Positions 1,770 to 17,346 of a stretch of DNA of 25,994 nt are shown in pieces. The stretch is from a virus, in IMG/VR virus record IMGVR_UViG_3300020438_000237, positions 1 to 25,994 of that record; one strand, written 5' to 3'. Positions within the stretch are counted from its first letter, which is position 1, and each line of letters opens with the position of its first letter. A program made the translations under genes and the position numbers. Below the pieces are notes generated by a model, which worked only from the letters and a program-made list of their open reading frames with translations, was not told the origin of the DNA and ran no database searches.

Positions 1770-2129
1770 ATGACAGAACAAAAAAAGAAAAACGCATTCC
1801 AAAAACTTAAAGATGGTTTGGATGATAAAGAAGAACAACTAGCTATCATCAGTCTTTTCGTAAGATTGGGCGTTGTGGTTTGGAGCGGTTTTATCGTAAC
1901 TTTAAACTACATAACAATACCTGGCTATAGTTCTGACCCTAAAGACATAACTTTCCCGGCTAGTTTATTAACAGGTGCGCTTGCTACTTTTGGATTGGAA
2001 GGATCTAAAAAACGTAGTGATAAAGACCTCAAAGTTGCAGAAAACCAAGGTATGGTGCAGACTATAAGGGTAGAAACACCTATTAAAATTGAAGGTGCAG
2101 AAGTAATCGACCCTAAATCTAAAAAATGA
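1770..2129 (+). CDS. Holin-like small membrane protein, 119 aa
   Basis: A charged N-terminus (about 25 residues, Lys-rich) is followed by two hydrophobic segments: about residues 25-46 (IISLFVRLGVVVWSGFIVTL) and 60-77 (TFPASLLTGALATFGLEG). A hydrophilic tail follows. Size, two membrane spans and charged ends fit holins or holin-like proteins, and similar proteins occur in marine cyanophages. The function is inferred, not shown by a family signature. The gene leads a plus-strand cassette: its stop overlaps the start of the first secreted protein by 4 bases. A 9-base repeat of the start region (ATGACAGAA at 1754 and 1770) leaves the true start slightly uncertain; the ATG at 1754 reads only a short 18-codon frame. 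Confidence 0.6.
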   Translation: MTEQKKKNAFQKLKDGLDDKEEQLAIISLFVRLGVVVWSGFIVTLNYITIPGYSSDPKDITFPASLLTGALATFGLEGSKKRSDKDLKVAENQGMVQTIRVETPIKIEGAEVIDPKSKK

Positions 2130-2611
2130 AAAAACTTTTTCCGTTTATTTTTGCTCTTGCAGCATCTTCCCCTGTTTATGCTGATATAACTTCGTCTATC
2201 AGTTCATCTGTAAAATTAGAAGTTTCTGCGGCAGCGACAGCAGCAGATCGTATTGGAAACTCATATAGTGTTTCTGGAACTGGAGTTACCACAACAGATG
2301 GAACTACTGCTGGAAGTGTTGGAGGATTAGGTGCTGCAACTAATGGTGTAAACGCTTATACGCCAATCACAGCTAGTCAGTTAACAGATGGCGAGAGCTT
2401 CAATTACACGGTTTCACATACTACTGGAGATACCATAGGCACAAGTCTTACCACAGGTGAAGTAAGTGCCTTTGGTGATATAACAAGTACATCTGGAGGA
2501 ACAGCAACGAACCTAGCTGGTACTGTAGATAATCATGTTATTACACTTACAGCCGGATCTCAAGGCACAACTGCTACTGGACAATATGTAACCACAGTAA
2601 CGGTAGACTAA
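2126..2611 (+). CDS. Secreted Ser/Thr/Gly-rich protein A of the export cassette
   Basis: The 161-aa product begins with a classic Sec signal peptide: MKK, a hydrophobic core to about residue 14, and likely cleavage after VYA (residue 19). The mature part is low in charge, has no cysteine, and is rich in Thr, Ser and Gly, suggesting an exported beta-rich structural protein. It shares blocks with the next gene: SYSVSGTGVTTTDG against EYTVTGTGISHDGG, and DGESFNYTVSHTTG against SGNSFQFTETYHGPG, in the same order. The two are therefore diverged duplicates. The start overlaps the holin-like gene (ATGA), implying coupled translation. I do not recognise the family; a host-envelope or extracellular role is inferred only from the signal peptide. 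Confidence 0.7.
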   Translation: MKKLFPFIFALAASSPVYADITSSISSSVKLEVSAAATAADRIGNSYSVSGTGVTTTDGTTAGSVGGLGAATNGVNAYTPITASQLTDGESFNYTVSHTTGDTIGTSLTTGEVSAFGDITSTSGGTATNLAGTVDNHVITLTAGSQGTTATGQYVTTVTVD

Positions 2612-2617
2612 TGAGTC

Positions 2618-3046
2618 ATGCGAAAGCTTTTATTACTATTATTTTTATATGTTTTACCAGCTAATGCCAATATTGTTCCTAATTTTACTACCGGGACAAT
2701 GTCTAGTACAACCTCTACAACTTCTACTCTCTCAGAATCGATTACTAGCAAAGATTTTTCAACAGGTTACGAATATACAGTTACAGGCACAGGAATATCA
2801 CATGATGGAGGAAATATGGCAGCAACCGCAGTTGAAGTTAATGGAACTGTAGGAGGTACTACTTATAAATGGACAGGATTAGATATGACAATAAAACCAA
2901 ACTGGACACAAACGAATCCGACATCAGGAAATTCTTTTCAGTTTACAGAAACATATCATGGGCCTGGTTTACAGAACATAACCACAATCCAAAGAGATAT
3001 AACAACAGAGTCCGTTACTACTACTACCTCTGTGTTCTCGCAATAA
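2618..3046 (+). CDS. Secreted Thr-rich protein B, paralogue of protein A
   Basis: The 142-aa product starts with a short Sec signal peptide (MRKLLLLLFLYVLPANA, cleavage likely after residue 17). The mature chain is rich in Thr and Ser, with TMSSTTSTTSTLSES near the N-terminus and ESVTTTTSVFSQ at the end. It repeats the order of motifs of the preceding gene (YTVTGTGISHDGG, then NSFQFTETYHGPG), which supports common ancestry. It has no cysteine. It follows protein A by only 6 bases. Its last 178 bases overlap the long version of the next ORF in another frame, so its C-terminal DNA may code in two frames, or the next gene's start is not yet understood. Confidence 0.7.
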   Translation: MRKLLLLLFLYVLPANANIVPNFTTGTMSSTTSTTSTLSESITSKDFSTGYEYTVTGTGISHDGGNMAATAVEVNGTVGGTTYKWTGLDMTIKPNWTQTNPTSGNSFQFTETYHGPGLQNITTIQRDITTESVTTTTSVFSQ

Positions 3047-4861: not shown

Positions 4862-4991
4862 GATTAAAGAAGCACTAATTAAGGCAAGTGTACCAATAAC
4901 ATTTATGGTACTTTTCTTGATTATAGGATTAGCACCGCTTTATGTCATGTATGGAATTATTGACAGAAATATTCCTGTAAAAACTAAATAA
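4860..4991 (+). CDS. Possible 43-aa membrane peptide on the opposite strand
   Basis: This ORF fills the only gap in the minus-strand series here. It starts within the CATG shared with the 78-aa gene and ends 8 bases inside the oxygenase gene's 3' end. The product has a strong hydrophobic helix (VPITFMVLFLIIGLAPLYVMYG, residues 11-32) with a basic end (NIPVKTK), like small phage membrane peptides. No minus frame reads through the gap. Against it: no visible ribosome-binding site, and it would need its own plus-strand transcript. It could be real, or a chance product of AT-rich DNA. Confidence 0.4.
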   Translation: MIKEALIKASVPITFMVLFLIIGLAPLYVMYGIIDRNIPVKTK

Positions 4992-5493
4992 AATTAAAAT
5001 TAATTACAACTCTTCTTTTTTTATCTGTGCAAGGAACACCAGCATGACGCAAAGATGAATTAAAAATAACAACTCTGTTTTCTTTACTTTCTACTTTTGT
5101 ACCATCTTCAAATAATGTATAACCATTATTTGTATTTATATAAGCTATTGCTGTAGTGCATGGCACATCAAAGTCGGTGTGTAACTCTCTAGTTATATGT
5201 TCTTTTGTTGCTACGTTTAAGTTTGCTTTTATACGCATAAGCGATGTTGGATTCATCCTATCTCCATAAGGTTTAATTATATCTAACCATTTAGGATAAT
5301 CTGTTACTACACCAGATAAAGGATCATAAAAAAGGTGTACAAATTGAAATTCATCTGGGTCTGCAAGTCCTACTTCTTTGGTGACAGAATCATTCCACAT
5401 CCAAGGAAACCCATAATCAAGTATTAAAGATTGAGCTAATCTAAATTGTTGTTCTGATAGGAAATTATCTATTACTTGTATTTTTTTTAGCAT
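4984..5493 (-). CDS. 2OG-Fe(II) oxygenase, prolyl-4-hydroxylase-like
   Basis: The 169-aa product matches the small 2-oxoglutarate/Fe(II) dioxygenase fold common in marine phages. The iron triad is visible as His105 and Asp107 in ELHTDFD and His150 in SSLRHAGVP; Arg160 or Arg161 in KKRRVVINFNF would bind 2-oxoglutarate. The N-terminal part (KIQVIDNFLSEQQF) is the usual start of this family. The reaction would be hydroxylation of a protein or small-molecule substrate with release of succinate and CO2. The substrate is unknown; fiber or capsid proteins made nearby, or host factors, are candidates. It overlaps the upstream coiled-coil gene by 29 bases and so is co-expressed with the fiber genes. 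Confidence 0.85.
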   Translation of the reverse strand: MLKKIQVIDNFLSEQQFRLAQSLILDYGFPWMWNDSVTKEVGLADPDEFQFVHLFYDPLSGVVTDYPKWLDIIKPYGDRMNPTSLMRIKANLNVATKEHITRELHTDFDVPCTTAIAYINTNNGYTLFEDGTKVESKENRVVIFNSSLRHAGVPCTDKKRRVVINFNFI

Positions 5494-5702: not shown

Positions 5703-6701
5703 TTAAATACTAAACTTAGCTTTTGCGTAAGTTGAAAACCTTGCTAGTTCAGCATCAGCAACCCTAATACCTTTATAGTATGCAATTTCAGCTATAGTTC
5801 CACTCCACTCATGGTTAGTAGATGTAGTGTTATGAAAATTACCAATACCTAATCTTGTATAACCACTTGTAGGTAAACTTGAAGGCGCACTACTTGCAGT
5901 CGCTACATTTGTAAAAGTACTTTGTCCTGATTCTTGCCATTTATATTCTGAACTCGCACCATTCGCATCCATACGGAAACAAAAAATACCTTTTTTTGTA
6001 CTAGATGAATAATCATGGTTGTCATATCCACTAATGCCTCCAACTTGTTCTCCATATGAGTTACTCCAAGTATGATCTCCAGCTAAATCTACTGACCATG
6101 AGCCATCTGTAGTATTGTTATATACTTGAACAAACATACCATCACCAAGACTTGTTCCACTATTGTGATCTGTTTTTTCGATAACCATTATTACACTCCA
6201 AGCTTCGTCAGCACCACCCCAAAAGTCACCAGAAGCGGTCACTAACATTCCAAAATTACTATCAGCACCTTGATTAAAGTCAATAGTTTTTTGGCTATTA
6301 AAACCCGAATCAGATGAATTATAAGTTAAGTGATCTGTATGACCAGCTACAAAACTTGTACCTCCAACTTGTGCGTTCCAAAGAGTTTTTGATTGTATTC
6401 CTTCACTTTTCCACCAATGCGTAGCTGTATTATCAAGATCCCAAGTCTTAGTTTGGTTTATTGTATTCCAATTAGTACCATCCCAAAACTCTAATTCACC
6501 TAACGTAGTGTTATAACGAAGAGAATAATTTGGAGGTGAACTATCTCTTTGTGCAGTTGTTCCGGCTGGTATTACAACGTGTTTATTAGAACCTAAAGTC
6601 AACTCATTTGGAACGGCAACCGTACCATCTGAATTTAGGGTAACTCCATCACCAGAAGCTCCTGTATGCCTAATACTGTTAACAATTAATCTGCTGCTCA
6701 T
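5703..6701 (-). CDS. Tail fiber with LamG/concanavalin-like domain, 332 aa
   Basis: Three parts are visible. Residues 1-40 are an N-terminal module (SSRLIVNSIRHTGASGDGV) shared with the 189-aa fiber at 9033. Residues 45-81 are a small GTTAQRD...LRYNTTLGELEFWDGTNW module shared with two other fibers. Residues about 90-330 look like a laminin-G/concanavalin-type beta-sandwich (GMLVTASGDFWGGADEAWSV, TRLGIGNFHNTTSTNHEWSG, IAEIAYYKGIRVADAE), typical of carbohydrate-binding phage fibers. It is the last of the fiber series before the small-gene block. Host-surface glycan binding is inferred from the domain type. Confidence 0.75.
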   Translation of the reverse strand: MSSRLIVNSIRHTGASGDGVTLNSDGTVAVPNELTLGSNKHVVIPAGTTAQRDSSPPNYSLRYNTTLGELEFWDGTNWNTINQTKTWDLDNTATHWWKSEGIQSKTLWNAQVGGTSFVAGHTDHLTYNSSDSGFNSQKTIDFNQGADSNFGMLVTASGDFWGGADEAWSVIMVIEKTDHNSGTSLGDGMFVQVYNNTTDGSWSVDLAGDHTWSNSYGEQVGGISGYDNHDYSSSTKKGIFCFRMDANGASSEYKWQESGQSTFTNVATASSAPSSLPTSGYTRLGIGNFHNTTSTNHEWSGTIAEIAYYKGIRVADAELARFSTYAKAKFSI

Positions 6702-6704
6702 AAT

Positions 6705-7046
6705 TTATGGTTTTGGATATTTGTCCTTAGTAGCTTTGATTGCAGTTGCAAAAGCACCCGATGTAGTTACTGTACCAGCAACAATATCTTTATACAGAGC
6801 ATCTAGCTGATCTCCGATTGTTGGGTAGATAGTATCTGTTGTACCATCAGCACCAGTTCTTTGAGACTTGTAGGCTATCGCTGCTGCGGCTGTGTCAAGG
6901 CTCGCCCTAGCTGCTGCTATTTTGGTACTGTCTAAAGAAACTGCATTACCATCAGCGTCAAACGCTCCAGCAGAGTCGTCTATAGAAACAACAGGTTTTG
7001 TTTCTGATTTGTAAGCTTCATATATAGCTTCATGGTCAAGAGACAT
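6705..7046 (-). CDS. Fiber-associated protein, possible tail assembly chaperone, 113 aa
   Basis: The C-terminal half carries IYPTIGDQLDALYKD and ends IKATKDKYPKP, the same plan as the 87-aa gene at 7162 (NYPSIPEQLDLLWHAID, IKAVKDANPKP). The YPxIxxQLDxL block is frequent in small proteins next to fiber genes of marine phages. A chaperone or adaptor role is inferred from position and size only. The N-terminal part differs from its paralogue and is Ala- and Asp-rich (DSAGAFDADGNAVSLDS). It lies 3 bases upstream of the LamG-like fiber gene. Confidence 0.6.
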   Translation of the reverse strand: MSLDHEAIYEAYKSETKPVVSIDDSAGAFDADGNAVSLDSTKIAAARASLDTAAAAIAYKSQRTGADGTTDTIYPTIGDQLDALYKDIVAGTVTTSGAFATAIKATKDKYPKP

Positions 7047-7048
7047 AA

Positions 7049-7165
7049 TTAAGTAGGTTCAGTAGGAAAAGTAACAGATGTTATATCTAGATTACCATCA
7101 GAATCAAGAGTTGGGGAGCTACTAGCTGGTAAATCTCTTATTACTCCGACTTTTAATGTACTCAA
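7049..7165 (-). pseudogene. Remnant of a tail assembly chaperone gene, or 38-aa micro-gene
   Basis: This frame reads MSTLKVGVIRDLPASSS and then LDITSVTFPTEPT before its TAA. The RDLPA and VTFPTEP blocks match the end of the chaperone gene at 10213 (RDLPANTADPNNVTYPTKP), so it looks like the C-terminal end of a lost Phage_tail_APC-type gene. Its only possible start is a TTG that overlaps the stop of the 87-aa gene (TTGA); the frame is closed by a TAA a few codons further upstream. The first residues, MSTLKVGVI, also resemble the start of phage fiber proteins, so a recombinant micro-gene is the alternative. Confidence 0.45.
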
Positions 7166-7425
7166 GGTTTTGGATTAGCGTCCTTTACTGCCTTAATAGA
7201 ATTATAGAATGCACTTAACTTTGTTTTTAAGTCTGCGTCAGCATCTATTGCATGCCAAAGTAAATCTAGTTGTTCTGGAATACTTGGATAATTATCCCTT
7301 CTATTCAGTTTGTAACCATTTGCATCTTGGTAACTTTTTACAACAGCTTCCTCTGCATCTCTAGCAGTTTCTTCCTCTGCTGTAAAAGCAACTCTTTCTC
7401 CGTTGATTAAATGAAATCTAGCCAT
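7162..7425 (-). CDS. Fiber-associated protein, paralogue of the 113-aa gene, 87 aa
   Basis: A short N-terminal segment (ARFHLINGERVAFTAEEE) reads like the small beta motif that starts many phage tail chaperones and adaptors. A helical middle follows, then NYPSIPEQLDLLWHAIDADADLK and the end IKAVKDANPKP, shared with the gene at 6705. The two are diverged duplicates with different N-termini, separated only by the chaperone remnant. Its ATG directly abuts the stop of the 234-aa fiber gene. Function as a fiber-assembly chaperone is inferred. Confidence 0.6.
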   Translation of the reverse strand: MARFHLINGERVAFTAEEETARDAEEAVVKSYQDANGYKLNRRDNYPSIPEQLDLLWHAIDADADLKTKLSAFYNSIKAVKDANPKP

Positions 7426-8129
7426 TATCTTTTAAGTCCATAAAGAGTGTAACCATAATTTTTAAAACTTCCTGATGCTGCATATATTATAAATCCATCA
7501 GGATTTACACTTACATTATATGTACCAAAATTAGTTTCTCCTCGGTGTGATGCAGACGAATCATATCTTTGAGCCATAACATAATAGCTATTTCTTGATT
7601 GATTAAAGTCAGAAGATGTTTTAGGAATAATTGTTGCATCTATCATTCTATAACCTTCCCCAGTTTTATCACCAGCACTAAAAGAAAATAATCCAAAAGT
7701 TTCTTCATCTGCATTGTCAAAGTAACTACCACCTCCTGAAACACCTAAATTAGTCCAGTTATATTCATCTGAAGTTTGATCTGTTCCACTAACTCTCCAA
7801 CGAAACCTTAATTCAACAGAACTTTCATCTGTTGGGGTCATATTCATTATTAACTTAAATGCTTGATAAGTTGATGTATCCAAACTATCAAAAGTAAAGT
7901 TAGATACAGTACCGCCTGTAGAATCTTGTACCGATGCAAGTTTTACAAAATCGGCTGTTTCAGACGCAAATGATAAATTTCCCGAACCATCTGTTTTTAA
8001 AACCTGGTTGGCACTTCCATCAGAGCCAGGTAACTTAAATTCAACTTCACTTGAAGAAGGATTTGATGTTGGTACGGCTATCGAAACCGCATTACCACCA
8101 GAATGTACGAGCTTAATCTTTCCTGTCAT
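7425..8129 (-). CDS. Short tail fiber, type-2 N-terminus, 234 aa
   Basis: Residues 1-35 (GKIKLVHSGGNAVSIAVPTSN, ending near KLPGSDG) match the N-terminus of the 203-aa fiber at 9599 (SQIKLLHSGGNGVILAAPSSN), an attachment-type module of marine phage fibers. QVLKTDGSGNLSF is a linker seen in many tail fibers. The C-terminal domain (about 60-234) resembles that of the 199-aa fiber at 10469 in length and layout: a first strand pair FTFDSLDTSTYQAFKLIMNM, aromatic-rich middle, and an end in a short Gly/Tyr strand. So N- and C-terminal modules have different partners. It overlaps the upstream 203-aa fiber by 4 bases (ATGA). Confidence 0.65.
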   Translation of the reverse strand: MTGKIKLVHSGGNAVSIAVPTSNPSSSEVEFKLPGSDGSANQVLKTDGSGNLSFASETADFVKLASVQDSTGGTVSNFTFDSLDTSTYQAFKLIMNMTPTDESSVELRFRWRVSGTDQTSDEYNWTNLGVSGGGSYFDNADEETFGLFSFSAGDKTGEGYRMIDATIIPKTSSDFNQSRNSYYVMAQRYDSSASHRGETNFGTYNVSVNPDGFIIYAASGSFKNYGYTLYGLKR

Positions 8130-8737
8130 GCTGCATACTCCGTTAATGTAAATTCATTACCACCAGCATACTCTGAGATAGAACCTGTACTATCACGACC
8201 TAAATAAATAGCTCCACTGCCTATTCTCCATTGCATTTTGTAAGTTATTGCTGTGCTACCATCCCCACCTGGACTTGCATCTAAATGATGAAAAGCTTGA
8301 TGATAAATTTGATTCGTTGCGTCATTACCACCAACGTAAGAAGTCATACTGCTACTAACACCATCATATCCTGCGGTATCAGCAACAGCTAAATATGTAG
8401 TTGTTCCACTTTTTATTCTTGCGATTCTTACTGATCCACCAGCAATATTATCTGCACCATAAGCATAACTAAATTGTATTAAAACTTTGCTATTTGTTTG
8501 AGGTGTAATATTTAAAGTAATTCCACTTATATCCGCAAAACTTGTTCCAGTATAAGAAGTTGTATCTGTTTTACTAACACTTAAAACTTGTAGTGCTTTA
8601 CCACCAACACCACTTGCTAGTTTCGCAGAAGTAACAGCATTTGAAGCTAAAGAATCTGCGTCTATCGTTCCATCAGGTAAGCCCCCTACTGCAAGTCCTG
8701 TAATTACTCCTGTGTTTCCGTTGATTGATACTGGCAT
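8126..8737 (-). CDS. Short tail fiber, type-3 N-terminus, 203 aa
   Basis: The N-terminal module (NGNTGVITGLAVGGLPDGTI, then DADSLASNAV) matches the 199-aa fiber at 10469 (NGSGTVTGISVGGLPDGII). The C-terminal domain starts KALQVLSVSKTDT and contains FADISGITLNITPQTNSKVLIQ, homologous to the fibers at 9033 and 9599 (KILQVV...YTDVTGxSVSITP). These C-terminal domains end alike in a strand before EYAA, EVGA or EVAA. It is a structural, presumably receptor-facing protein. The start overlaps the upstream stop as TAATG. Confidence 0.7.
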   Translation of the reverse strand: MPVSINGNTGVITGLAVGGLPDGTIDADSLASNAVTSAKLASGVGGKALQVLSVSKTDTTSYTGTSFADISGITLNITPQTNSKVLIQFSYAYGADNIAGGSVRIARIKSGTTTYLAVADTAGYDGVSSSMTSYVGGNDATNQIYHQAFHHLDASPGGDGSTAITYKMQWRIGSGAIYLGRDSTGSISEYAGGNEFTLTEYAA

Positions 8738-9033
8738 TAGACTATAGTGAACACCGATCCAGAGGGTATAGTTAAAGTATAGGTTGCCATTGAGAAAGGG
8801 CCAGCAGCTAAACCATTTTTATTATTACCAATCGTAATATTCCCTGCTGCTGCTATCGGGTTTTGAAATATACCATCAGTTTCACCGCCAGCCGATATTG
8901 CATTAGTAGATGCAGCCGTTATCCTACCCTGTGCATCAACTGTAATTGCTGGTATTGCAGTAGCCGAACCATAACTCCCTGCACTAACAGAAGTATCAGC
9001 AAGTCCAGCAGCTTGTGCTTTAGTTAATCCCAT
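8737..9033 (-). CDS. Small fiber-like protein, 98 aa
   Basis: I chose the ATG at 9033 because it overlaps the upstream stop as TAATG; the longer version would add 11 residues inside the upstream gene. The protein begins GLTKAQAAGLADTSVSAGSY, followed by the fiber-type repeat ITVDAQGRITAAST. It ends YTLTIPSGSVFTIV, almost the same C-terminus as the 683-aa fiber (VTVTIPSGSRYVIV). It looks like a fiber reduced to a linker and a C-terminal cap, perhaps a shaft or trimer-cap component. Confidence 0.65.
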   Translation of the reverse strand: MGLTKAQAAGLADTSVSAGSYGSATAIPAITVDAQGRITAASTNAISAGGETDGIFQNPIAAAGNITIGNNKNGLAAGPFSMATYTLTIPSGSVFTIV

Positions 9034-9602
9034 TATGCTCCTACCTCCATGACTGTAATTGTGCAAGGATATCTTCCTGTATGGGCTGCGTCACCATCAC
9101 TATTTGATCTGCCTACATAAACATTTCCACTTCCTTGATTCTTGCATCTTACTTTGTAATTAAAGGCTGAAGTTGTGTTAGGAGAGTCTAAAAAACTCAT
9201 ACCACATTCTTTAAGATCATTTGTATCGTTAAAATAAGTTGGGCCAAAAGATCCTCTTTGTCTGCTACCACCTCCATCATCTCCTATACAAACAGAAGTA
9301 TTATCTGAAGTTCTAAAAATTTCAAAAAATCCTTGTGTACTATTATCAGTTGCAGCCATTACATTAATTGTAATAAAAATTTTACTTGATGTTGAAGTTG
9401 GTGTTATAGATACTGATAGCCCAGTTACATCTGTATAACTGCTTGAAGATGTTGAAAAGGTACTAGTTTTAGTTGTTGATACTACTTGAAGAATTTTACC
9501 AGCACCTCCGTTAGGAAAAGCTGGTTTGCCTGAGTTATCAAAAGTAATTGCATCTGCTGAAGCAGAAGTGGATCGTATTGCGTTTGTTATAAGCCTACTC
9601 AT
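9033..9602 (-). CDS. Short tail fiber, type-1 N-terminus, 189 aa
   Basis: The N-terminal module (SRLITNAIRSTSASADAITF) matches the 332-aa LamG-like fiber. The C-terminal domain (KILQVVSTTKTSTF, SYTDVTGLSVSITPTSTSSKI, SFLDSPNTTSAFNYKVRC, ending TITVMEVGA) is closely related to the fiber at 9599, which shares SFLDSPNTTSA and TVMEVxA. It is thus a hybrid of modules found separately in two neighbours. The first codons overlap the stop of the upstream fiber (ATGA). Confidence 0.7.
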   Translation of the reverse strand: MSRLITNAIRSTSASADAITFDNSGKPAFPNGGAGKILQVVSTTKTSTFSTSSSSYTDVTGLSVSITPTSTSSKIFITINVMAATDNSTQGFFEIFRTSDNTSVCIGDDGGGSRQRGSFGPTYFNDTNDLKECGMSFLDSPNTTSAFNYKVRCKNQGSGNVYVGRSNSDGDAAHTGRYPCTITVMEVGA

Positions 9603-10210
9603 GCTGCCACCTCCATTACGGTTATTGTTGAAATACCAGTAGCTGTATAACTATTAGATGCTGTACTTGTGGACGTTGGTACGTTAATTGAAATATTTCT
9701 GTTACTATAACCACTAACTTGCAGCTTATAAGTTATAGCAGAAGTCGTATTTGGAGAATCTAAAAAAGAAGTTCCAGTATTTTCTAGTTGATAACTATTT
9801 TCATGTGATAAAGAACCAAGTGTTCCAACTCTTGCACCACCTCCCAAAACACCAGATCCAGTAGGTACTCCTATATGTGTTGAATCTCTAAGTAACCTAA
9901 AAGAAGCATAGTTATTTGCTGTACCACCAACTTGTAGCTCAAAATTAATTAATATTTTGTTTGATGCTGATGCTGGTGTGATGCTTACAGACATTCCAGT
10001 AACATCTGTATAAGCATAAGCTGTGCTAGTAAACTGATCTGTTTTAACTGTTTGTACAACTTGCAAAATTTTACCAGCAGTTGCAGTTGTAGCTATCGTT
10101 CCATCAGCATCACCAGGTAAGGTAAGGGTACGATCAGATGCAGGGTTAGAACTAGGTGCAGCTAATATAACTCCATTTCCACCGCTATGTAATAACTTGA
10201 TTTGGCTCAT
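9599..10210 (-). CDS. Short tail fiber, type-2 N-terminus, 203 aa
   Basis: It combines the N-terminal KLLHSGGNGVILAAPSSNP module, ending in TLTLPGDADGTI, shared with the fiber at 7425, with the C-terminal KILQVV/TDVTGMSVSITP domain shared with the fibers at 9033 and 8126. The TSFLDSPNTTSAITYKLQVSG block is nearly repeated from its neighbour at DNA level too, suggesting fairly recent duplication or gene conversion. The chaperone-like gene at 10213 lies 2 bases upstream of its start codon. Confidence 0.7.
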   Translation of the reverse strand: MSQIKLLHSGGNGVILAAPSSNPASDRTLTLPGDADGTIATTATAGKILQVVQTVKTDQFTSTAYAYTDVTGMSVSITPASASNKILINFELQVGGTANNYASFRLLRDSTHIGVPTGSGVLGGGARVGTLGSLSHENSYQLENTGTSFLDSPNTTSAITYKLQVSGYSNRNISINVPTSTSTASNSYTATGISTITVMEVAA

Positions 10211-10212
10211 GG

Positions 10213-10467
10213 TTAACTAGGTTTTGTTGGGTAAGTGACGTTGTTAGGGTCAGCAGTATTAGCTGGTAAGTCTCTAAGAGCTTGTCTATAAGTTTTCATT
10301 GCATCAGTAAGTGTGTGATCTGCAAGTGCAAGATAATCTGTTTCTGCTAATAAATTATTTCTTGTAGACCTTAAATTAGCAAGTGCTTCTGCATCTGTAG
10401 GCGGTGTATCAGAAATTGTTGTTTCTGTTATTTTGCCTGTTTGTATGTCAAGTGTAGTATTTTTCAT
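10213..10467 (-). CDS. Tail fiber assembly chaperone, Phage_tail_APC-type, 84 aa
   Basis: The C-terminal half has the typical layout of the Phage_tail_APC family: LRSTRNNLLAETDYLALAD, then MKTYRQALRDLPA, a DP-containing stretch and YPTKPS at the end. The first 25 residues form a short beta motif (LDIQTGKITETTISDTPPTD). Such proteins help fold or attach side or tail fibers and usually lie next to the fiber they serve; here it lies between two short fibers. The remnant at 7049 preserves the same C-terminal blocks, so the cassette once held two copies. Confidence 0.75.
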   Translation of the reverse strand: MKNTTLDIQTGKITETTISDTPPTDAEALANLRSTRNNLLAETDYLALADHTLTDAMKTYRQALRDLPANTADPNNVTYPTKPS

Positions 10468-10468
10468 A

Positions 10469-11068
10469 TTAATCTTGATAATAACTTAGTGATGCTGAAC
10501 CATTATCAAATGAGCCAGTATTTAAAAATAATTGTGCTTGTGTAATATTAGCTCCTAAATTTGCATAACCTTGCCCCGAAAAATAAGTTGCATTATTACC
10601 TCTAGTTACATCTGACATTATATTCCATCTATCCGTACCAGCAGTTTTCCAGCATTGAATTTGACCATTAAAAACGTGTTCTGCTCTTCCATAATTCAGA
10701 TTGTATAACATATGCCTACTTGTCCAAGCATCAACTCTTTGATAACTCGTTTCAAGATAAGAAACAATAGCGTTATAACCACTATCTAATAGCCCAGAAG
10801 CAGTACCTAATCTTAATCCTGTATAACTTTCACTACCATTAGAACCTGTATTACTAGATATGTTTAAAAAATTTATACGAAATGCTGTAGTATCAGTTGG
10901 TATTCCTGAGAACGTATAACTTCCACCTGTGCCAATGGAAGTGTAATTTACATGAGTCCATTTTCCAACTGCACCACTTGCTAAATCAGCACTTTGTATT
11001 ATTCCATCAGGTAATCCACCTACGCTTATTCCTGTTACTGTTCCTGATCCGTTTAATCCTATTGGCAT
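10469..11068 (-). CDS. Short tail fiber, type-3 N-terminus, 199 aa
   Basis: The start (PIGLNGSGTVTGISVGGLPD, then GIIQSADLASGAVG) is the module shared with the fiber at 8126. The C-terminal domain (WTHVNYTSIGTGGSYTFSGI, AFRINFLNISSNTGSNGSES, SYYQD at the end) is a beta-rich, aromatic domain whose closest partner here is the 234-aa fiber at 7425. It has one cysteine (QCWKTAG). A distal host-binding domain is inferred from its position in the cassette. It lies 12 bases after the 683-aa fiber gene. Confidence 0.65.
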   Translation of the reverse strand: MPIGLNGSGTVTGISVGGLPDGIIQSADLASGAVGKWTHVNYTSIGTGGSYTFSGIPTDTTAFRINFLNISSNTGSNGSESYTGLRLGTASGLLDSGYNAIVSYLETSYQRVDAWTSRHMLYNLNYGRAEHVFNGQIQCWKTAGTDRWNIMSDVTRGNNATYFSGQGYANLGANITQAQLFLNTGSFDNGSASLSYYQD

Positions 11069-11080
11069 AATTTTGACCCC

Positions 11081-13132
11081 CTAGACAATAACATAACGTG
11101 AACCTGACGGAATGGTAACTGTTACTCCACTTGCTACTATTATATCCCCTGCACTAACTCCTGACTTGTTTGTGGTCATAGTATAATTATTTGAAATTGT
11201 TAGCGAGTTTTCTGTGATACAACCATCAGCTTTTTGTGATGAAACTCCAGTTAATGCAGATCCATCTATAGCTGGTAGGGCAGAAGGAAAACGTGCATCA
11301 GGTATAGTTCCAGAAGCTAAGTTAGAAGCATTTGTAGTATCTGTTGTAGCTGAAGTTGCAAGGCCAGCTATCTTGGAAGCTGCTATCGCTGCACTTGCGT
11401 TTATATCAGCATTAACAATAGTGCCATCAACGATCTTTGCACTTGTTACTGTATTGTCACCAGGAGTTCCAATCGCAATCGTAGCTCCCATATTAATAAT
11501 GAAATATGTTGCACCATTAGGAGGAGCAGAGTCAAAGATAATATCAGTACCACTAATAACATATCCATCTGTCATATCACCCTGTCCAGACCCATCATTG
11601 GGTTGTTGCATCACACCATTAATTGAGACTCGTAAGATTTCTGCATTACTTGGTGTTACTGCTGTACTTGTTCCTTTAGTAACTAGCTTAAATCTATAAG
11701 CAGATCCGTTAAATGTAGCAGAACCTCCACCAGTTCCAGAAGATGATGCAATATCCAATAAATCTGCTGTTCCTGTAGCTGCAACTCCACCAATTTCACC
11801 CCAAGAACTTCCGTTATATCCTTCAAATTCTGAAGTTTGACTATTGAATCTAAACATACCTCCAGAGGGAGATCCTGGTCTTTGAGCAGTCGTGCCAGAA
11901 GCAACATCAATAGCACCTGTTCCTGTCATCAAAATATTGTCACTAACAGTAAATGTGCCAGTAACATCCATATTTCCACTAACACTCAAGCTAGATAGCA
12001 AAGTTCCTGTAGCTGTAGCAGAGTTTGTCTGAACAGCATTACCCATCAACGAATGGGCTGAACATTGGTAATGAATTACCATTGGAGTGGTATCTGCTAT
12101 AACGATTTGCGTATATGCACCACTAGAACCAGGAGTTCCACTTGTCGTTACGTTGGTTGTATAAGCTGTAGTTTTATTTGACTCAAGATAAAAACGAAGA
12201 GGATGACCACTATTACTACCATCTGATTGGTCAAACTTATAAGTACGACCTGGTGTGAGACTTAAAAATGGTGATTCTTTACCATCAATTACATAACCAT
12301 TACCAGATCCACTTCCGTTATATCTATGGGCTGCGGTTTTACTTGCAACTGTAACTGTAAAGGTTTTTAGCGATCCAGTATAAGTTGCATGGTGAGAAGC
12401 AAACCCTCTTATATTTCCATCATTGGTAAGAGTTAATGTTCCTGTAAAACTAGGATCTGCATTTTGACCAGGAGCTACCCAACTAAGAACACCAGAAGCA
12501 TTACTAGATAAGACATATCCACTTACTCCTGTATCAGCAGAAGGTAATGTCCAGACAACATTTGATGAAACTGTAGCTGGAGATTTAAAACCTACATAAT
12601 GTGATGAATCACTATCTAAATATCTAAATTCTTTTTGAGCAGAAACAGAAATATGTTCACTACTTGTCCAAGAATCTGTTGAATCAATCCAGTTAAATGT
12701 TTTATCTGTAGCTCCTTTTAACGTTAATCCACCGCCATCAGCAGTCGTATCAGATGGTGTTGTAACTTTTCCAAGAGTAATATTTTTATCTTCTACATCA
12801 AGATTGGTTGTATTAATCGTGGTTGTCGTACCACTAACAGTTAAATCACCAGGGATTGTGACAAGACCAGCAGAACTGATTGTTAACCTTCCAACTCCAG
12901 CAGTACTAAGGGTTAAAGTATCTGATCCACCACTTATTCCTGTATTTGGATCGGAATTAAAACTAAAAGATGGTGCTGAAGCAGATCCATCAGGTGCTTT
13001 GCTTAGTAAATTTGCATATGTAATCTTATTGTTTGAACCTGTACCACCACCACTTACATCGACAATAGCTAACACATCAGTACTAGCTGGTGCGGTTAAA
13101 GCGGTTAATTCTGATATTTTTTTATTTGTCAT
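11081..13132 (-). CDS. Large tail fiber with cupredoxin-like domain, 683 aa
   Basis: The N-terminus (TNKKISELTALTAPASTDVL, then DVSGG) is a common start of cyanophage fibers. Residues about 50-230 are fiber repeats (FNSDPNTGISGGSDTLTL, TLTVSGTTTTINTTNLDVED). Residues about 255-372 form a compact domain with His310, Cys357, His360 and Met363, spaced like the type-1 copper ligands of plastocyanin except for a shorter His-Met gap. Residues 412-449 are the GTTAQRP...FEGYNGSSWGEI module. A further structural part follows and the protein ends TIPSGSRYVIV, as in the 98-aa gene. It is the largest fiber of the cassette and follows the tail-collar fiber by 2 bases. Confidence 0.8.
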   Translation of the reverse strand: MTNKKISELTALTAPASTDVLAIVDVSGGGTGSNNKITYANLLSKAPDGSASAPSFSFNSDPNTGISGGSDTLTLSTAGVGRLTISSAGLVTIPGDLTVSGTTTTINTTNLDVEDKNITLGKVTTPSDTTADGGGLTLKGATDKTFNWIDSTDSWTSSEHISVSAQKEFRYLDSDSSHYVGFKSPATVSSNVVWTLPSADTGVSGYVLSSNASGVLSWVAPGQNADPSFTGTLTLTNDGNIRGFASHHATYTGSLKTFTVTVASKTAAHRYNGSGSGNGYVIDGKESPFLSLTPGRTYKFDQSDGSNSGHPLRFYLESNKTTAYTTNVTTSGTPGSSGAYTQIVIADTTPMVIHYQCSAHSLMGNAVQTNSATATGTLLSSLSVSGNMDVTGTFTVSDNILMTGTGAIDVASGTTAQRPGSPSGGMFRFNSQTSEFEGYNGSSWGEIGGVAATGTADLLDIASSSGTGGGSATFNGSAYRFKLVTKGTSTAVTPSNAEILRVSINGVMQQPNDGSGQGDMTDGYVISGTDIIFDSAPPNGATYFIINMGATIAIGTPGDNTVTSAKIVDGTIVNADINASAAIAASKIAGLATSATTDTTNASNLASGTIPDARFPSALPAIDGSALTGVSSQKADGCITENSLTISNNYTMTTNKSGVSAGDIIVASGVTVTIPSGSRYVIV

Positions 13133-13134
13133 AA

Positions 13135-14091
13135 TTAGAATTTAATAACATACATAAGGGCTTTGTTTTTTACACGAACCTCAGTTCCACCATCAGAAGC
13201 AATAGTGTGAGTATGAGAAGCATCAAAATTAACTCCTCCACAGACATTGGAGTCAGGACTTCCAGGTGTTCCTCCTAAAGTATTACCCCCAACTTTTGTA
13301 AATACACCACTAGCAGAACCTCCAAAACTTCCAAAAGATTCAGATATTCCATTTATAGCACCAGTTAAACTTGTTGTGGCTGCTGTATGATCGTGAGATT
13401 TGTTTTGATCTGATTGACTAGATGCAAAAGATCTTCCGCTATCTACTCCAGCACTATTATCCCAACCTCTTACAAACTGTCCTCTTAAATCAGGCAGATT
13501 AAATGTAGAAGATCCATCTCCTGTTCCCCATGTTGTTGATATTGAACTAAACAAACTAGCATAAGTTGATCTACTGACAGCAGCACCATTACATTCTAAA
13601 TAACCTGATGGAACAGTAGAAGTAGCAAAGGTAAATACTGACCCTGCTGGCACTCCATTAGCAATCTCTCCCCATCCAGTTCCGTTATAACCTTCAAATT
13701 GCGTAAGGCTAGTATTGAATCTTATATCGCCTGTCGCTGGGGTTGGTCTTTGAGCAGTAGTTCCTGATGGTAACTGTAACGACCCAGTACCAGTTAATAT
13801 CAAATCACCAGCAGAAGTAACAGTTCCAGAAAATGTAGGGGATGCTTTGGTTGCAAGTCCAAGATTATTAGCATCTGTCAAATCACCTAAAGTTAACCAA
13901 CCATTATTTGAACTATTTCTTATTTTTAATAAATTATTAGCAGTATCAGCCCATATCTTATAAGCAACAGTAGTGGTAGGAGCAGAAGAACCACTATTAG
14001 ATGATTGAATATCACCAAGACAAACATTCAAATCTGATCGGAATGTTTGGCCTACGGCATTGGCAATGTCAAAATCATGTCCATTACTCAT
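13135..14091 (-). CDS. Tail fiber with phage tail collar domain, 318 aa
   Basis: The N-terminus (SNGHDFDIANAVGQTFRSDL) and the following WADTANNLLKIRNSSNNGW block are typical of marine cyanophage fibers. Residues 110-144 are the GTTAQRPTPATGDIRFN / FEGYNGTGWGEI module. Residues 147 to about 212 are a clear tail collar domain: PSGYLECNGAAVSRSTYASL, then GDGSSTFNLPDLRGQFVRGWD. The rest has His-rich motifs (SHDHTA, ASHTHTIASDGG) like the metal-binding HxH motifs of some phage fiber tips. It is the first fiber gene after J and lies directly next to it (TAAATG). Confidence 0.88.
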   Translation of the reverse strand: MSNGHDFDIANAVGQTFRSDLNVCLGDIQSSNSGSSAPTTTVAYKIWADTANNLLKIRNSSNNGWLTLGDLTDANNLGLATKASPTFSGTVTSAGDLILTGTGSLQLPSGTTAQRPTPATGDIRFNTSLTQFEGYNGTGWGEIANGVPAGSVFTFATSTVPSGYLECNGAAVSRSTYASLFSSISTTWGTGDGSSTFNLPDLRGQFVRGWDNSAGVDSGRSFASSQSDQNKSHDHTAATTSLTGAINGISESFGSFGGSASGVFTKVGGNTLGGTPGSPDSNVCGGVNFDASHTHTIASDGGTEVRVKNKALMYVIKF

Positions 14092-17000
14092 TTATGTAAC
14101 CTCCTTACCAAAACCTGATGCAGCCCATACAAAAGATCTTGCGACTGCTGCACTACCATTTTTAAATGTCACTTGAAATCCTGTTCTGCTTATATTAGCA
14201 AGTTCAAAGAAATCACCTGTTTGTTGAGTTGTTGGTGTCACTACGACAGTTGGTGTATTTTTAAATGGATTTGTGAAAGATACAGTATATTGTGACGATC
14301 CAGTAGTAATTGGAGTCGAGATAGATTCTGTTCTTCCTTGTAATTCTAGTGTAGCTCCTAATTGAGTTACAGCTATATTTTGGTTTGTGTCACTACTTGT
14401 TAATATTGCCTTAAATTGAAATGCTCTTCCAGTTATCAATACATTACTAAATTCCTTGTAATCACTCCAAGTTGGAGAACCAGATGGATTGTCATTAGTT
14501 GATCTTACATAAACAGCAGCATTACATTTTGTTGCTTCAGTTGTACCTCCAACAGCATCTATATAACCCCAAGTATCAATCAAATCAGTTCTTGAATCCC
14601 ATAAACTATTCAATATAAAATTACTAGCTTTAAGAGTTTTTCTTAAATTTACATCATAGGGTTGTGTTAAATCTACCGAGTTTGCAAAGGCATATTCTCC
14701 TGATGTTGCTGTTGCATTGCTAGTAACTGTTAGCTTTAAAGCATCTATAGAAGAGTCATAAACAGTATTAGTTTTAGATCCTGTAAAGTTTGCAGTATGC
14801 TCATCAACAGTTGATACCACAAGTCTTTCCGTAGGTGCTGGTAAGTTTGTTGTAACTCTAGTATTATTCCAATCTGAGTCATTTGAACCAGGTGCATCAG
14901 ATTGCCTTCCTCCATCATCCTCAAATTTAATTAGATAAGTTCCAGAAAGTAAAGGAACAATTTTTTGAGTCTGGTTTCCAGCAGCAGCAACTACAATTTC
15001 CTGTGCATCTTTCCATTGTGCTAATGATGTTAAAGAAGAATGTCTGATAAGGGTCTTCCCACCCAACAACACGTCCAATTCTGTGGCACGATTCCAACTT
15101 AAGATTGCACTTGATTCGTCTATCGGTAATAAGCTAACACCACTTACATTAGCTGGAACAGCAGTTTTTCCTACAGCTACAAATGGACTAAGTGAGTTAG
15201 GTAATGTAGATCTTAATCCTGATGAGCTAACGCTATAAACTTCAATCGTATAATTACCAGCAATCGTATCTTGTATCTCATAACTTTTAGCACCTTCAAC
15301 AGAACGAGAGGTATAGTTACCATCTTCATATCTCCATCTGACATAAACATTATCAGTAGAAGTTGTCCAACTTACAATAATTTTTACTCTTGCAATCCCA
15401 GTATTTTCATAAATAACTTCCTCTGCTGTAATACCAGTTGGAGCAGATGGAGCTATATCTAAATTTGTTATATCTCTTGTAGGTAAAGTGATACCACTTT
15501 CAACGTGTGCGTATTTACCAGAATTGTATTCACTTGCAGTAATTGTATAAAAAGCTCTATCTTTTTCTTCTATTGATAAAACTCTCCAAGTGCTTGTTTG
15601 AAGTCCTGTTGTTTGATAAATCCAAACACTATTTGTTTGAGGAGCAGAAGTAAAAGCACTTGATACTGAAATAACACTTCCTGATATACCGCTTACAGTT
15701 TTATTTTCAACAGAACCATCAGAAAGAATAACAGATAAAGTAGAACCTACAGAATATGAAAGTCCTGTTGAATCATCTACAGTTATAGCTGTAGTTGTTG
15801 CACTACTAATACGACCACCTCTTCGTTCCCCTGCTCTCATTTCATCTGCAACTTCTATAACTTGACCTGGCCTTACAAGAACTCCAGCATCTATAGCACA
15901 ACTAAATGTAATTACTTCTCTCTCTACATTACTCATATAGAGCATCCACTTCGCTAAACGAGAAGCCTGACCCCTTGATGTGCAAGCAAAACTATCTATA
16001 TTTTTAACAATACTTCCGTACCTAGCTTGGTTAGCGGTATCAATCTGCTCCACATAATTTATATCTCGTAGTTCTAAATCTAAATATTTAGCAATAACAA
16101 CTGTAGGTCTTGCCTTTTGACTCGTGTTTGAATAACTAAAGCCAGGTTGTAATACGTTTGCAAGTGTAAATAAATAGCTAGAATCTTTTGGTGAATCTTG
16201 TGCAATAGTTAATGCACCAGCACTCCAGAATGGCATTGATCTAAAGACACTACACATTTGATTTATGACGTTATAAGCTTCCTGTTGATTTTGAATCGCA
16301 ACATTACAATTAAATCTAGGTTCTGTTGAACCTGTACCAGTTCCATCATCTACCTGTTCAGCACAATAAACAGATGCTTGATAAAAGCTAAATTTATCTA
16401 AGCTTGATTCTTGTAAATGAGAACCCAAACCATACCTGTCAGAAGTTAAGAGATCGTATAAGCACCAAGCTGGATCGCTAGTAAATTGAGCAGCACCAAG
16501 AGTTCCGTTAAAAGTTCCTGAGTAGTTTAAACTTCCGTCTGCATTTACAGAAGTGACATTATGTGGAACTTTTACTTTGATTCCCTTTACTAAATATTTT
16601 CTAGTTGGGATAGAACTAAATTGTTCAGCGTCAACTTTTAATCCAACAAGTGCTGTATTTGGGTATGTTCTTTGGTCATATTTTATTTCTACATAATTAT
16701 TAAATTGAAAAGAATTTACTAATTTACTAGATCCACTATCTGCTGTAATTCTTGTGACTTTAATATTTACAGGAAAAGCCCCATCTAAATTTATTAAATA
16801 ATCACGCAAATATGCGTCAGGTGTTCTTCCTGTAATAGTTCCAGCATTACCAGAAACGACTGTTGAATATGACCCACCACTATATTGTACAGCTATAGCA
16901 AGTTCTACACTTGTTCCAAAAATATCTCCTTCGTCACTAAATTTTTGTAGTTGAGGAACTGTTATCTGTACTGAAACTGCATCAACATTTGAGTCTGTAA

Positions 17001-17346
17001 TCTGTATTATTTTTGGTGATGCCTGTGGAACTGTAGAAAAACCTGTTGCTTTGGTTGTCGCAACATCTCTTGTTATAGGAATGGTTGTTTGATTTGATGT
17101 TCCTGTTCGTGCTTCAAAAGTTACATCTTTAAAATTAAAAGTACCATCAGCAGCTTGTAGTGGTGTGTTGTTCAAAAATATAGATTTTGCACCATCTTCA
17201 AGTCCTTGTATTTCACCTTCTCCAATAAGATCTAAAACTCTAGCAAAACTTTTTGAGTCTAAATTATCTTTTGCCTCGGTAGGAGTACCACCGCCTCCTC
17301 CACCGCCTTTTCCTCCTCCACCGCCAGAGCCAATAATTTTACTCAT
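14092..17346 (-). CDS. J: Tail tip host-specificity protein, lambda J-like, 1084 aa
   Basis: Length (lambda J is 1132 aa), position after the I- and K-like genes, and sequence fit the central tip protein J. A Gly-rich N-terminus is followed by the conserved start DLIGEGEIQGLEDGAKSIFL and LNNTPLQAADGTFNFKDVTF. The middle holds ARYGSIVKNIDSFACTSRGQ, then RLAKWMLYMSNVEREVITFS and VLVRPGQVIEVADEMRAGER, typical of the J hub domains. A fibronectin-III-like stretch follows (SAPTGITAEEVIYENTG, IVSWTTSTDNVYVRWRYEDG). The C-terminal 300 residues are the likely receptor-binding or fiber-docking part. The start overlaps the I-like gene by 4 bases. Confidence 0.92.
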   Translation of the reverse strand: MSKIIGSGGGGGKGGGGGGGTPTEAKDNLDSKSFARVLDLIGEGEIQGLEDGAKSIFLNNTPLQAADGTFNFKDVTFEARTGTSNQTTIPITRDVATTKATGFSTVPQASPKIIQITDSNVDAVSVQITVPQLQKFSDEGDIFGTSVELAIAVQYSGGSYSTVVSGNAGTITGRTPDAYLRDYLINLDGAFPVNIKVTRITADSGSSKLVNSFQFNNYVEIKYDQRTYPNTALVGLKVDAEQFSSIPTRKYLVKGIKVKVPHNVTSVNADGSLNYSGTFNGTLGAAQFTSDPAWCLYDLLTSDRYGLGSHLQESSLDKFSFYQASVYCAEQVDDGTGTGSTEPRFNCNVAIQNQQEAYNVINQMCSVFRSMPFWSAGALTIAQDSPKDSSYLFTLANVLQPGFSYSNTSQKARPTVVIAKYLDLELRDINYVEQIDTANQARYGSIVKNIDSFACTSRGQASRLAKWMLYMSNVEREVITFSCAIDAGVLVRPGQVIEVADEMRAGERRGGRISSATTTAITVDDSTGLSYSVGSTLSVILSDGSVENKTVSGISGSVISVSSAFTSAPQTNSVWIYQTTGLQTSTWRVLSIEEKDRAFYTITASEYNSGKYAHVESGITLPTRDITNLDIAPSAPTGITAEEVIYENTGIARVKIIVSWTTSTDNVYVRWRYEDGNYTSRSVEGAKSYEIQDTIAGNYTIEVYSVSSSGLRSTLPNSLSPFVAVGKTAVPANVSGVSLLPIDESSAILSWNRATELDVLLGGKTLIRHSSLTSLAQWKDAQEIVVAAAGNQTQKIVPLLSGTYLIKFEDDGGRQSDAPGSNDSDWNNTRVTTNLPAPTERLVVSTVDEHTANFTGSKTNTVYDSSIDALKLTVTSNATATSGEYAFANSVDLTQPYDVNLRKTLKASNFILNSLWDSRTDLIDTWGYIDAVGGTTEATKCNAAVYVRSTNDNPSGSPTWSDYKEFSNVLITGRAFQFKAILTSSDTNQNIAVTQLGATLELQGRTESISTPITTGSSQYTVSFTNPFKNTPTVVVTPTTQQTGDFFELANISRTGFQVTFKNGSAAVARSFVWAASGFGKEVT

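What the first reader, a model, noticed from the sequence alone, without database searches (positions are those of the whole stretch)
5703..14091. Combinatorial tail-fiber cassette built from exchanged N- and C-terminal modules
Seen: three N-terminal module types (SRLI(V/T)N(S/A)IR; KL(V/L)HSGGN; NG..G.(V)TG(L/I).VGGLPDG) each occur twice, joined to at least three C-terminal types (LamG-like; KxLQV.../(D)(V/I)(T/S)G.(S/T)(V/L)(S/N)ITP; aromatic beta domain). Type-1 N pairs with LamG at 5703 but with the KxLQV domain at 9033. Type-2 pairs with the aromatic domain at 7425 but the KxLQV domain at 9599. Type-3 pairs with the KxLQV domain at 8126 but the aromatic domain at 10469. This is domain swapping within one genome. 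About eight kb for fibers on a lambda-like tail implies several receptor-binding proteins at once, or a reservoir for host-range change by recombination.
Basis: partly seen in the sequence, partly recalled or inferred. Interest (0 to 1): 0.75.

Follow-up and report, generated by a model that had tools for sequence, protein, structure and literature searches.

The report
Phage fiber sockets with swappable heads
A virus of ocean cyanobacteria carries a row of six short tail-fiber genes whose front ends are fixed, position-specific sockets and whose tips are swapped freely between positions and even between unrelated viruses, which suggests how such viruses keep changing what they stick to.

Summary
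In about 258 related IMG/VR contigs the N-modules are not exchanged. They are position-specific sockets in a fixed order: tip-A-B-C, present twice in the window (s2-A1-B1-C1, then G-A2-B2-C2). An N-module's nearest relative in another phage is in the same slot in 211 of 216 cases. The C-terminal heads move. 18 near-identical head clusters sit on two or more N-types. The shared DNA starts within 14 nt of a GKILQV joint and usually ends at the stop codon. A P-SSP7 (cultured podovirus) A-head sits in a siphovirus C1 socket at 85.8% nt. Heads in a given slot are almost all replaced once J differs by 2.5-10% (1/56 retained). Small companion genes follow the head family, not the slot, and heads with a built-in S74 chaperone have none. 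Every A gene (145/145, against 0/296 B/C genes) follows a protein ending in a ~50-aa tip domain. A Prochlorococcus single cell holds a relative. The two 'aromatic' heads are unrelated by profile. The closest analogue is the Ackermannviridae branched tailspike set. Display in virions and docking on the tip are inferred, not shown.

The parts
11084..11239 (-). Tip domain: C-terminal 52 aa of the s2 fiber (gene 11081-13132), immediately upstream of A1
   Evidence: HMM from s2/G/P-SSP7 gp17 C-termini; 145/145 A genes follow a tip protein, 0/296 B/C genes do
10469..11068 (-). Slot A1: N-module A (about 10967-11068) + head of a small family (with L164 and L284-L287)
10213..10467 (-). Companion of the A1 head, Phage_tail_APC (PF16778) / PHROG tail fiber assembly; travels with this head into a T7-like phage (L284)
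9599..10210 (-). Slot B1: N-module B (about 10076-10210) + KxLQV head (9599-10075), TNF/C1q-like jelly roll
   Evidence: AF2 pLDDT 83, first head strand at residue 48 = ILQVV; Foldseek PDB
9033..9602 (-). Slot C1: N-module C (about 9501-9602) + KxLQV head; overlaps B1 stop by ATGA
8737..9033 (-). G: short linker protein ending in a second tip domain, upstream of A2 (likely start ATG at 9033)
8126..8737 (-). Slot A2: N-module A (about 8603-8737) + KxLQV head
7425..8129 (-). Slot B2: N-module B (about 7995-8129) + 'arom' head family
7162..7425 (-). Companion of the arom head (sub-family s7, MARFHLINGE)
   Evidence: s7 follows only arom heads
6705..7046 (-). Positional companion s0 (DHEAIY), usually between B and the last C
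   Evidence: same gene in P-SSP7 (PSSP7_040)
5703..6701 (-). Slot C2: N-module C (about 6609-6701) + lectin-like head
   Evidence: fold weak
13135..14091 (-). s1: collar-type fiber upstream of the array, with its own replaced patch at about 13192-13398
   Evidence: PF07484; patch
11081..13132 (-). s2: long fiber carrying the first tip domain; proposed base for A1-B1-C1
14092..17346 (-). J: lambda-type central tail protein (phrog_31), used as backbone yardstick

Best explanation
The cassette is a socket-and-head array of short tail fibers in a siphovirus lineage that infects Prochlorococcus. Each short fiber has a 25-45-aa N-module specific to its slot and inherited with the backbone (shown), and a C-terminal head acquired from a pool shared by many marine phages (shown). 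Heads are joined at a fixed seam: a GKILQV joint upstream, which is the first strand of the head, and downstream the stop codon, which carries the Shine-Dalgarno signal and ATGA start of the next gene. Swapping a head therefore leaves the socket, the reading frame and translation of the next gene intact (seam shown, consequence inferred). Heads that need help folding bring a family-specific companion gene; S74 heads carry their own chaperone (association shown, chaperone role inferred). The unit is tip-A-B-C. The likeliest assembly is that A, B and C dock at or near the tip domain of the preceding fiber, so the window's virion would show up to six different heads on two tip complexes (inferred). 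Recombination at short seam homologies, perhaps by a Rad52/ERF-type recombinase, is the likely exchange mechanism (inferred).
For: Fixed gene order A-B-C (145 AB, 126 BC and 33 CA adjacencies, 11 others). N-module nearest neighbour is in the same slot 72/73, 69/70 and 70/73. KxLQV heads occur on A 121, B 98 and C 53; the nearest KxLQV head is in the same slot only 42/136, against 23.6 at random. 18 clusters of heads at >=75% aa span two or three N-types; 20 of 20 measurable blocks start between -14 and +6 nt of the joint and 20 of 22 end within 14 nt of the stop. P-SSP7 A-head against siphovirus L236 C1-head: 85.8% over 486 bp, gene positions 93-578 and 93-575. Head retention by J identity: 17/20 at >=97.5%, 1/56 at 90-97.5%, 4/1221 below. 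Window against L171: 5 of 6 heads replaced while junction islands stay 83-96%. Head-companion mutual information 0.990 bits, within-slot shuffles at most 0.328, 0/2000. S74 heads (PF13884 in both members tested) without companion 8/8. Tip rule 145/145 against 0/296, on s2, T7-type and Mtd_N-type fibers. Codon identity given same residue: joint 0.726 vs 0.539 expected, 3' end 0.725 vs 0.511, interior 0.503 vs 0.486. Close relative in Prochlorococcus single cell AG-418-M08, whose viral contig has an ERF recombinase.
Against: No virion proteomics or cryo-EM: that the short fibers are built in, and dock on the tip, is untested. Gene adjacency of tip and A could reflect co-transcription rather than contact. 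The ERF recombinase was found in the single-cell viral genome only, not in other related contigs. The 3' seam conservation is fully explained by the ribosome-binding site. Most data are metagenome contigs, and loci were retrieved with N-module, tip-gene or J queries.
Confidence: 0.8

Rival explanations
1. Within-genome shuffling: modules are recombined among the six genes of one genome, as a reservoir for phase or host-range variation.
For: Same N-types and the KxLQV family recur within one window.
Against: Window KxLQV heads are only 32-42% alike; closest heads to B1 are in other contigs. N-modules almost never reassort between slots. No convincing inverted repeats and no reverse transcriptase in 7 related records.
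Confidence: 0.07
2. No exchange: heads diverge very fast in place under selection, giving the look of swapped domains.
For: Receptor-binding tips evolve fast; many same-slot heads belong to one family.
Against: Near-identical heads (up to 97.7% aa) sit on non-homologous N-modules with sharp DNA boundaries; about half of same-slot comparisons differ in head family.
Confidence: 0.03
3. Metagenome assembly chimeras create the swaps.
For: Junction islands are conserved and could mislead an assembler; L005 and L171 meet at an exact 127-bp overlap.
Against: Joints are about 20 nt, far below a typical assembly word; the P-SSP7/L236 swap involves a cultured genome; the same architecture is in a single-cell contig and in P-SSP7.
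Confidence: 0.04
4. The array is real but the short fibers are alternates, with only one or a few built into each virion.
For: No proteomic data; ATGA-coupled small genes could be a store of alternates.
Against: Slot-specific sockets in fixed order, with head turnover in every slot, fit simultaneous fixed positions better.
Confidence: 0.2

Closest known systems
Branched tailspike complex of Ackermannviridae (TSP1-TSP4; PMC11414711)
   Same: Several receptor-binding proteins per virion, each with its own conserved N-terminal interaction domain; C-terminal receptor domains exchanged by recombination at conserved 5' ends
   Different: Here sockets are 25-45 aa, heads are small non-enzymatic-looking domains, heads jump between non-homologous sockets at one fixed joint, and head-specific companion genes travel along; backbone is lambda-type or T7-type tails of marine phages
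Tail-fiber gene set of cyanopodovirus P-SSP7 (PSSP7_036-041)
   Same: gp17 ends in the same tip domain, followed by A and B, an extra C-like gene, the s0 companion and C, with KxLQV heads
   Different: Podovirus with a single trio; the window has two trios on a lambda-type siphovirus
Metaviromic islands in marine phages (PMC3909814)
   Same: C1q-like, carbohydrate-binding, XkdW and oxygenase genes under-recruit; the N-terminal end recruits better than the C1q domain
   Different: That work shows population variability in pelagiphages; it does not describe slots, the joint, cross-slot transfers, the tip rule or companion specificity in the passages read
Alteromonas phage A5/V22 shared fiber + chaperone modules (PMC10579305)
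   Same: Fiber and cognate chaperone move together between phages of different morphology
   Different: One fiber with its chaperone, not a multi-slot array with interchangeable heads
TNF/C1q-like lectins (Bc2L-C N-domain, PLTL)
   Same: Predicted fold of the KxLQV head
   Different: Structural similarity only; sequence identity about 10%, no binding data

Membership tests
P-SSP7-type tip-A-B-C fiber array | Long fiber with C-terminal tip domain directly upstream of an A gene | tested here: met
   s2 to A1 and G to A2; P-SSP7 gp17
P-SSP7-type tip-A-B-C fiber array | A-B-C order of N-modules, s0 companion before the last C | tested here: met
Ackermannviridae-type branched tailspike complex | XD/TD (gp10-like) N-terminal interaction domains | tested here: not met
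   No Pfam match in any of the six fibers; N-modules are 25-45 aa
Ackermannviridae-type branched tailspike complex | Several receptor-binding proteins assembled into one branched complex | not testable with these tools
   Needs virion structure
Ackermannviridae-type branched tailspike complex | Conserved N-ends, exchanged receptor-binding ends | tested here: met
Diversity-generating retroelement | Reverse transcriptase | tested here: not met
   PF00078 absent from 7 related records; the window itself is a partial genome
Invertible fiber cassette (shufflon-like) | Inverted repeats flanking exchangeable ends | tested here: not met
   Only 4 weak 18-24-nt pairs
TNF/C1q-like head domain | Jelly-roll fold of the TNF/C1q type | tested here: met
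   AF2 pLDDT 83; Foldseek to Pgp3-CTD, PLTL, Bc2L-C; trimerisation and ligand not tested
LamG / concanavalin-type lectin (5703 head) | Pfam LamG signature or confident fold | tested here: inconclusive
   No Pfam hit; low-confidence model hits lectin folds
Tail fiber assembly chaperone (PF16778) for 10213-10467 | Score above Pfam cut-off | tested here: met
   56.8 bits against cut-off 26.6

The most novel reading that the evidence does not exclude
A standard quick-change tip complex, tip-A-B-C, is shared by lambda-type and T7-type tails in marine phages. Its sockets are fixed by position, any head with the GKILQV joint fits any socket, and each head that needs one brings its own folding helper. 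A virion would display three to six different receptor-binding heads, replaced faster than the rest of the phage changes by a few percent.
Probability: 0.5. Interest if true: 0.78.

Novelty: new variant of a known kind. Interest (0 to 1): 0.62.

Why it matters
Swapping of fiber tips is known, but seldom with the grammar visible: slot-specific sockets, one joint, one seam, matched helpers, and measured turnover. This makes testable how many receptor-binding proteins one marine virion carries, which socket sees the receptor first, and how unrelated viruses of the most abundant photosynthetic cells share a common pool of host-recognition domains. It also gives a practical rule for annotating the many 'hypothetical' short fibers of marine phages and for pairing heads with their chaperones.

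Tried and rejected
Shared 'aromatic' class of 7425 and 10469: rejected at profile level. DGR and invertible cassette: no support. RecT recombinase: not found in 8 records; integrase found in one distant record (L096) and, outside the viral contig, in the single-cell assembly, but not in the six other viral records. ERF protein searched in ten related viral contigs: none. LamG by Pfam at E=10: none. PDB sequence search: only 9efk 'orf22' C-terminus matches the KxLQV head convincingly; no paper for that entry in the library. A consensus A-module query against cultured phages found nothing at E 0.01, although P-SSP7 has the module by eye.

Full report
OBSERVATION. The window is a 25,994-base IMG/VR virus fragment with a lambda-type siphovirus tail module on the - strand: tape measure, M, L, K, I, J (14092-17346). 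After J come a collar fiber (s1, 13135-14091), a long fiber (s2, 11081-13132) and the cassette. Each N-type occurs twice, with same-type scores of 103, 91 and 80 and 0 of 1000 shuffles reaching them, while cross-type pairs equal shuffles. Read in transcription order the N-types are A1 B1 C1, then a 98-aa gene G, then A2 B2 C2: the same order twice. Small companion genes lie at 10213-10467, 7162-7425 and 6705-7046. No Pfam family covers any of the six fibers.

RELATIVES. J, G, the downstream 76-aa gene and the B-type N-end were used to fetch contigs from IMG/VR, giving 278 sequences including the window, or 258 after dropping duplicate loci of one contig. The order A-B-C is near universal: 145 AB, 126 BC and 33 CA adjacencies against 11 others. 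The window's lineage has two trios; other phages have one. L164 is identical to the window over 8.6 kb. A relative (J 87%) is a 41,291-bp contig in the Prochlorococcus single-cell genome AG-418-M08, so the host is most likely Prochlorococcus.

SOCKETS. Comparing only the first 25-38 residues, the nearest N-module in another phage is in the same slot 72/73 (A), 69/70 (B) and 70/73 (C). Mean identity is 0.67-0.69 between phages in the same slot, and 0.50-0.62 between the two trios of one phage. N-modules are therefore inherited by position, and the two trios diverged before these phages did.

HEADS. 436 heads fall into a few families: KxLQV (272; A 121, B 98, C 53), SAEL (77), RLGDT (31), YKEA (15), S74 (8), arom (7) and small ones. 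The nearest KxLQV head is in the same slot in 42/136 cases, against 23.6 at random. 18 clusters of heads at >=75% aa lie on more than one N-type. In 20 of 20 measurable pairs the shared DNA starts -14 to +6 nt from the joint, and in 20 of 22 it ends within 14 nt of the stop; one exception runs 187 nt on into the companion gene. The A-head of cultured podovirus P-SSP7 and the C1-head of siphovirus L236 share 85.8% over 486 bp between non-homologous sockets, which cannot be an assembly artefact of one sample. Heads are retained in 17/20 slot comparisons at J >=97.5%, 1/56 at 90-97.5% and 4/1221 below. L171 comes from the same assembly as L005 and meets it at an exact 127-bp overlap. Across the pair the backbone (J to s2) is 94-96% identical to the window, and five of six heads are different. 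That the two are one phage is an inference from the overlap.

SEAMS. The model of B1 (pLDDT 83) places the first strand of the head at residue 48, directly after the joint. For heads on different N-types with diverged interiors, codon identity at equal residues is 0.726 at the joint (0.539 expected), 0.725 at the 3' end (0.511) and 0.503 inside (0.486). The 3' end reads atGGAGgTaGCAGCATgA: a Shine-Dalgarno sequence and an ATGA overlap (139 of 230 heads; another 82 have TAATG/TGATG). That explains the 3' seam without recombination. The 5' seam has no such explanation and fits short-homology recombination; relaxed recombination by phage Rad52-like proteins is established elsewhere (PMC3945230, listed). 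An ERF protein is in the single-cell viral contig but was not found in other contigs.

COMPANIONS. SAEL heads are followed by sub-family s1 (36/41), RLGDT by s2 (17/29), YKEA by s3 (14/15) and arom by s7 (4/5) (these sub-family labels are unrelated to the fibers s1 and s2). In this table these sub-families follow no other head family. S74 heads have no companion (8/8) and the two tested carry the S74 chaperone domain. After collapsing heads at 80% identity and setting aside the positional s0 gene, head-companion mutual information is 0.990 bits, against at most 0.328 in 2000 within-slot shuffles. Shuffles do not correct for shared ancestry beyond the 80% collapse. The window's A1 head and its companion recur as a unit in L284, whose upstream fiber has a T7 tail-fiber N-domain.

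TIP RULE. A roughly 50-aa C-terminal domain shared by s2, G and P-SSP7 gp17 ends the protein upstream of every A gene tested (145/145) and none upstream of B or C (0/296). The bodies upstream differ: s2 of lambda-type phages, T7-type fibers (PF03906) and Mtd_N-type proteins. The simplest reading is that tip-A-B-C is a structural unit grafted onto different fibers. Physical docking is inferred.

FOLDS. The KxLQV head matches TNF/C1q-like lectins and, by sequence, the C-terminus of 'orf22' in PDB 9efk. The 5703 head is lectin-like only on a low-confidence model.

KNOWN AND NEW. Fixed N-ends with exchanged receptor ends are known from Ackermannviridae tailspikes. Population-level variability of C1q heads with steadier N-ends is known from marine phages, and joint transfer of fiber and chaperone from Alteromonas phages. 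I found no description of the slot grammar, the joint, transfers between sockets, the tip rule or head-specific companions, but the library holds only open-licence papers. Verdict: a new variant of a known kind, with strong comparative evidence for exchange and untested virion architecture.

LIMITS. Gene calls are ATG-only and greedy. Slots are named by position relative to G. Counts include related contigs and are not independent events. No expression, proteomic or structural data exist for this phage here.

Noticed in passing
window 4984-5493: 2OG-Fe(II) oxygenase-like gene is an indel: labelled in window, L164, L165 and L170, absent at the same junction in L171 and not labelled in most other D-bearing loci. 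PHROG calls it endonuclease V while Pfam gives weak oxygenase hits.
   Followed up: partly
window about 13192-13398 and 11278-11482: s1 (collar fiber) and s2 carry their own replaced patches: s1 patch differs in L005, L007 and L085 although flanks are well conserved; s2 patch differs in L085, L209 and L210.
   Followed up: partly
L085, L215, L222, L223: Altered order A C G A B B h C: the first trio lacks B and the second has two.
   Followed up: no
window 2126-3046: Two tandem genes for secreted-looking Ser/Thr-rich proteins on the + strand, facing the cassette; a similar gene follows the array in L287.
   Followed up: no
L023 / L183 (contig 3300020345_000002): J and the cassette end lie at opposite ends of one 42.5-kb contig, suggesting a circularly permuted or circular genome map.
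   Followed up: no
L291 5977-6552: P-SSP7 has an extra C-like fiber (MATLNATNLKH...) between B and the s0 companion; a similar N-end is at L290 348-932.
   Followed up: no
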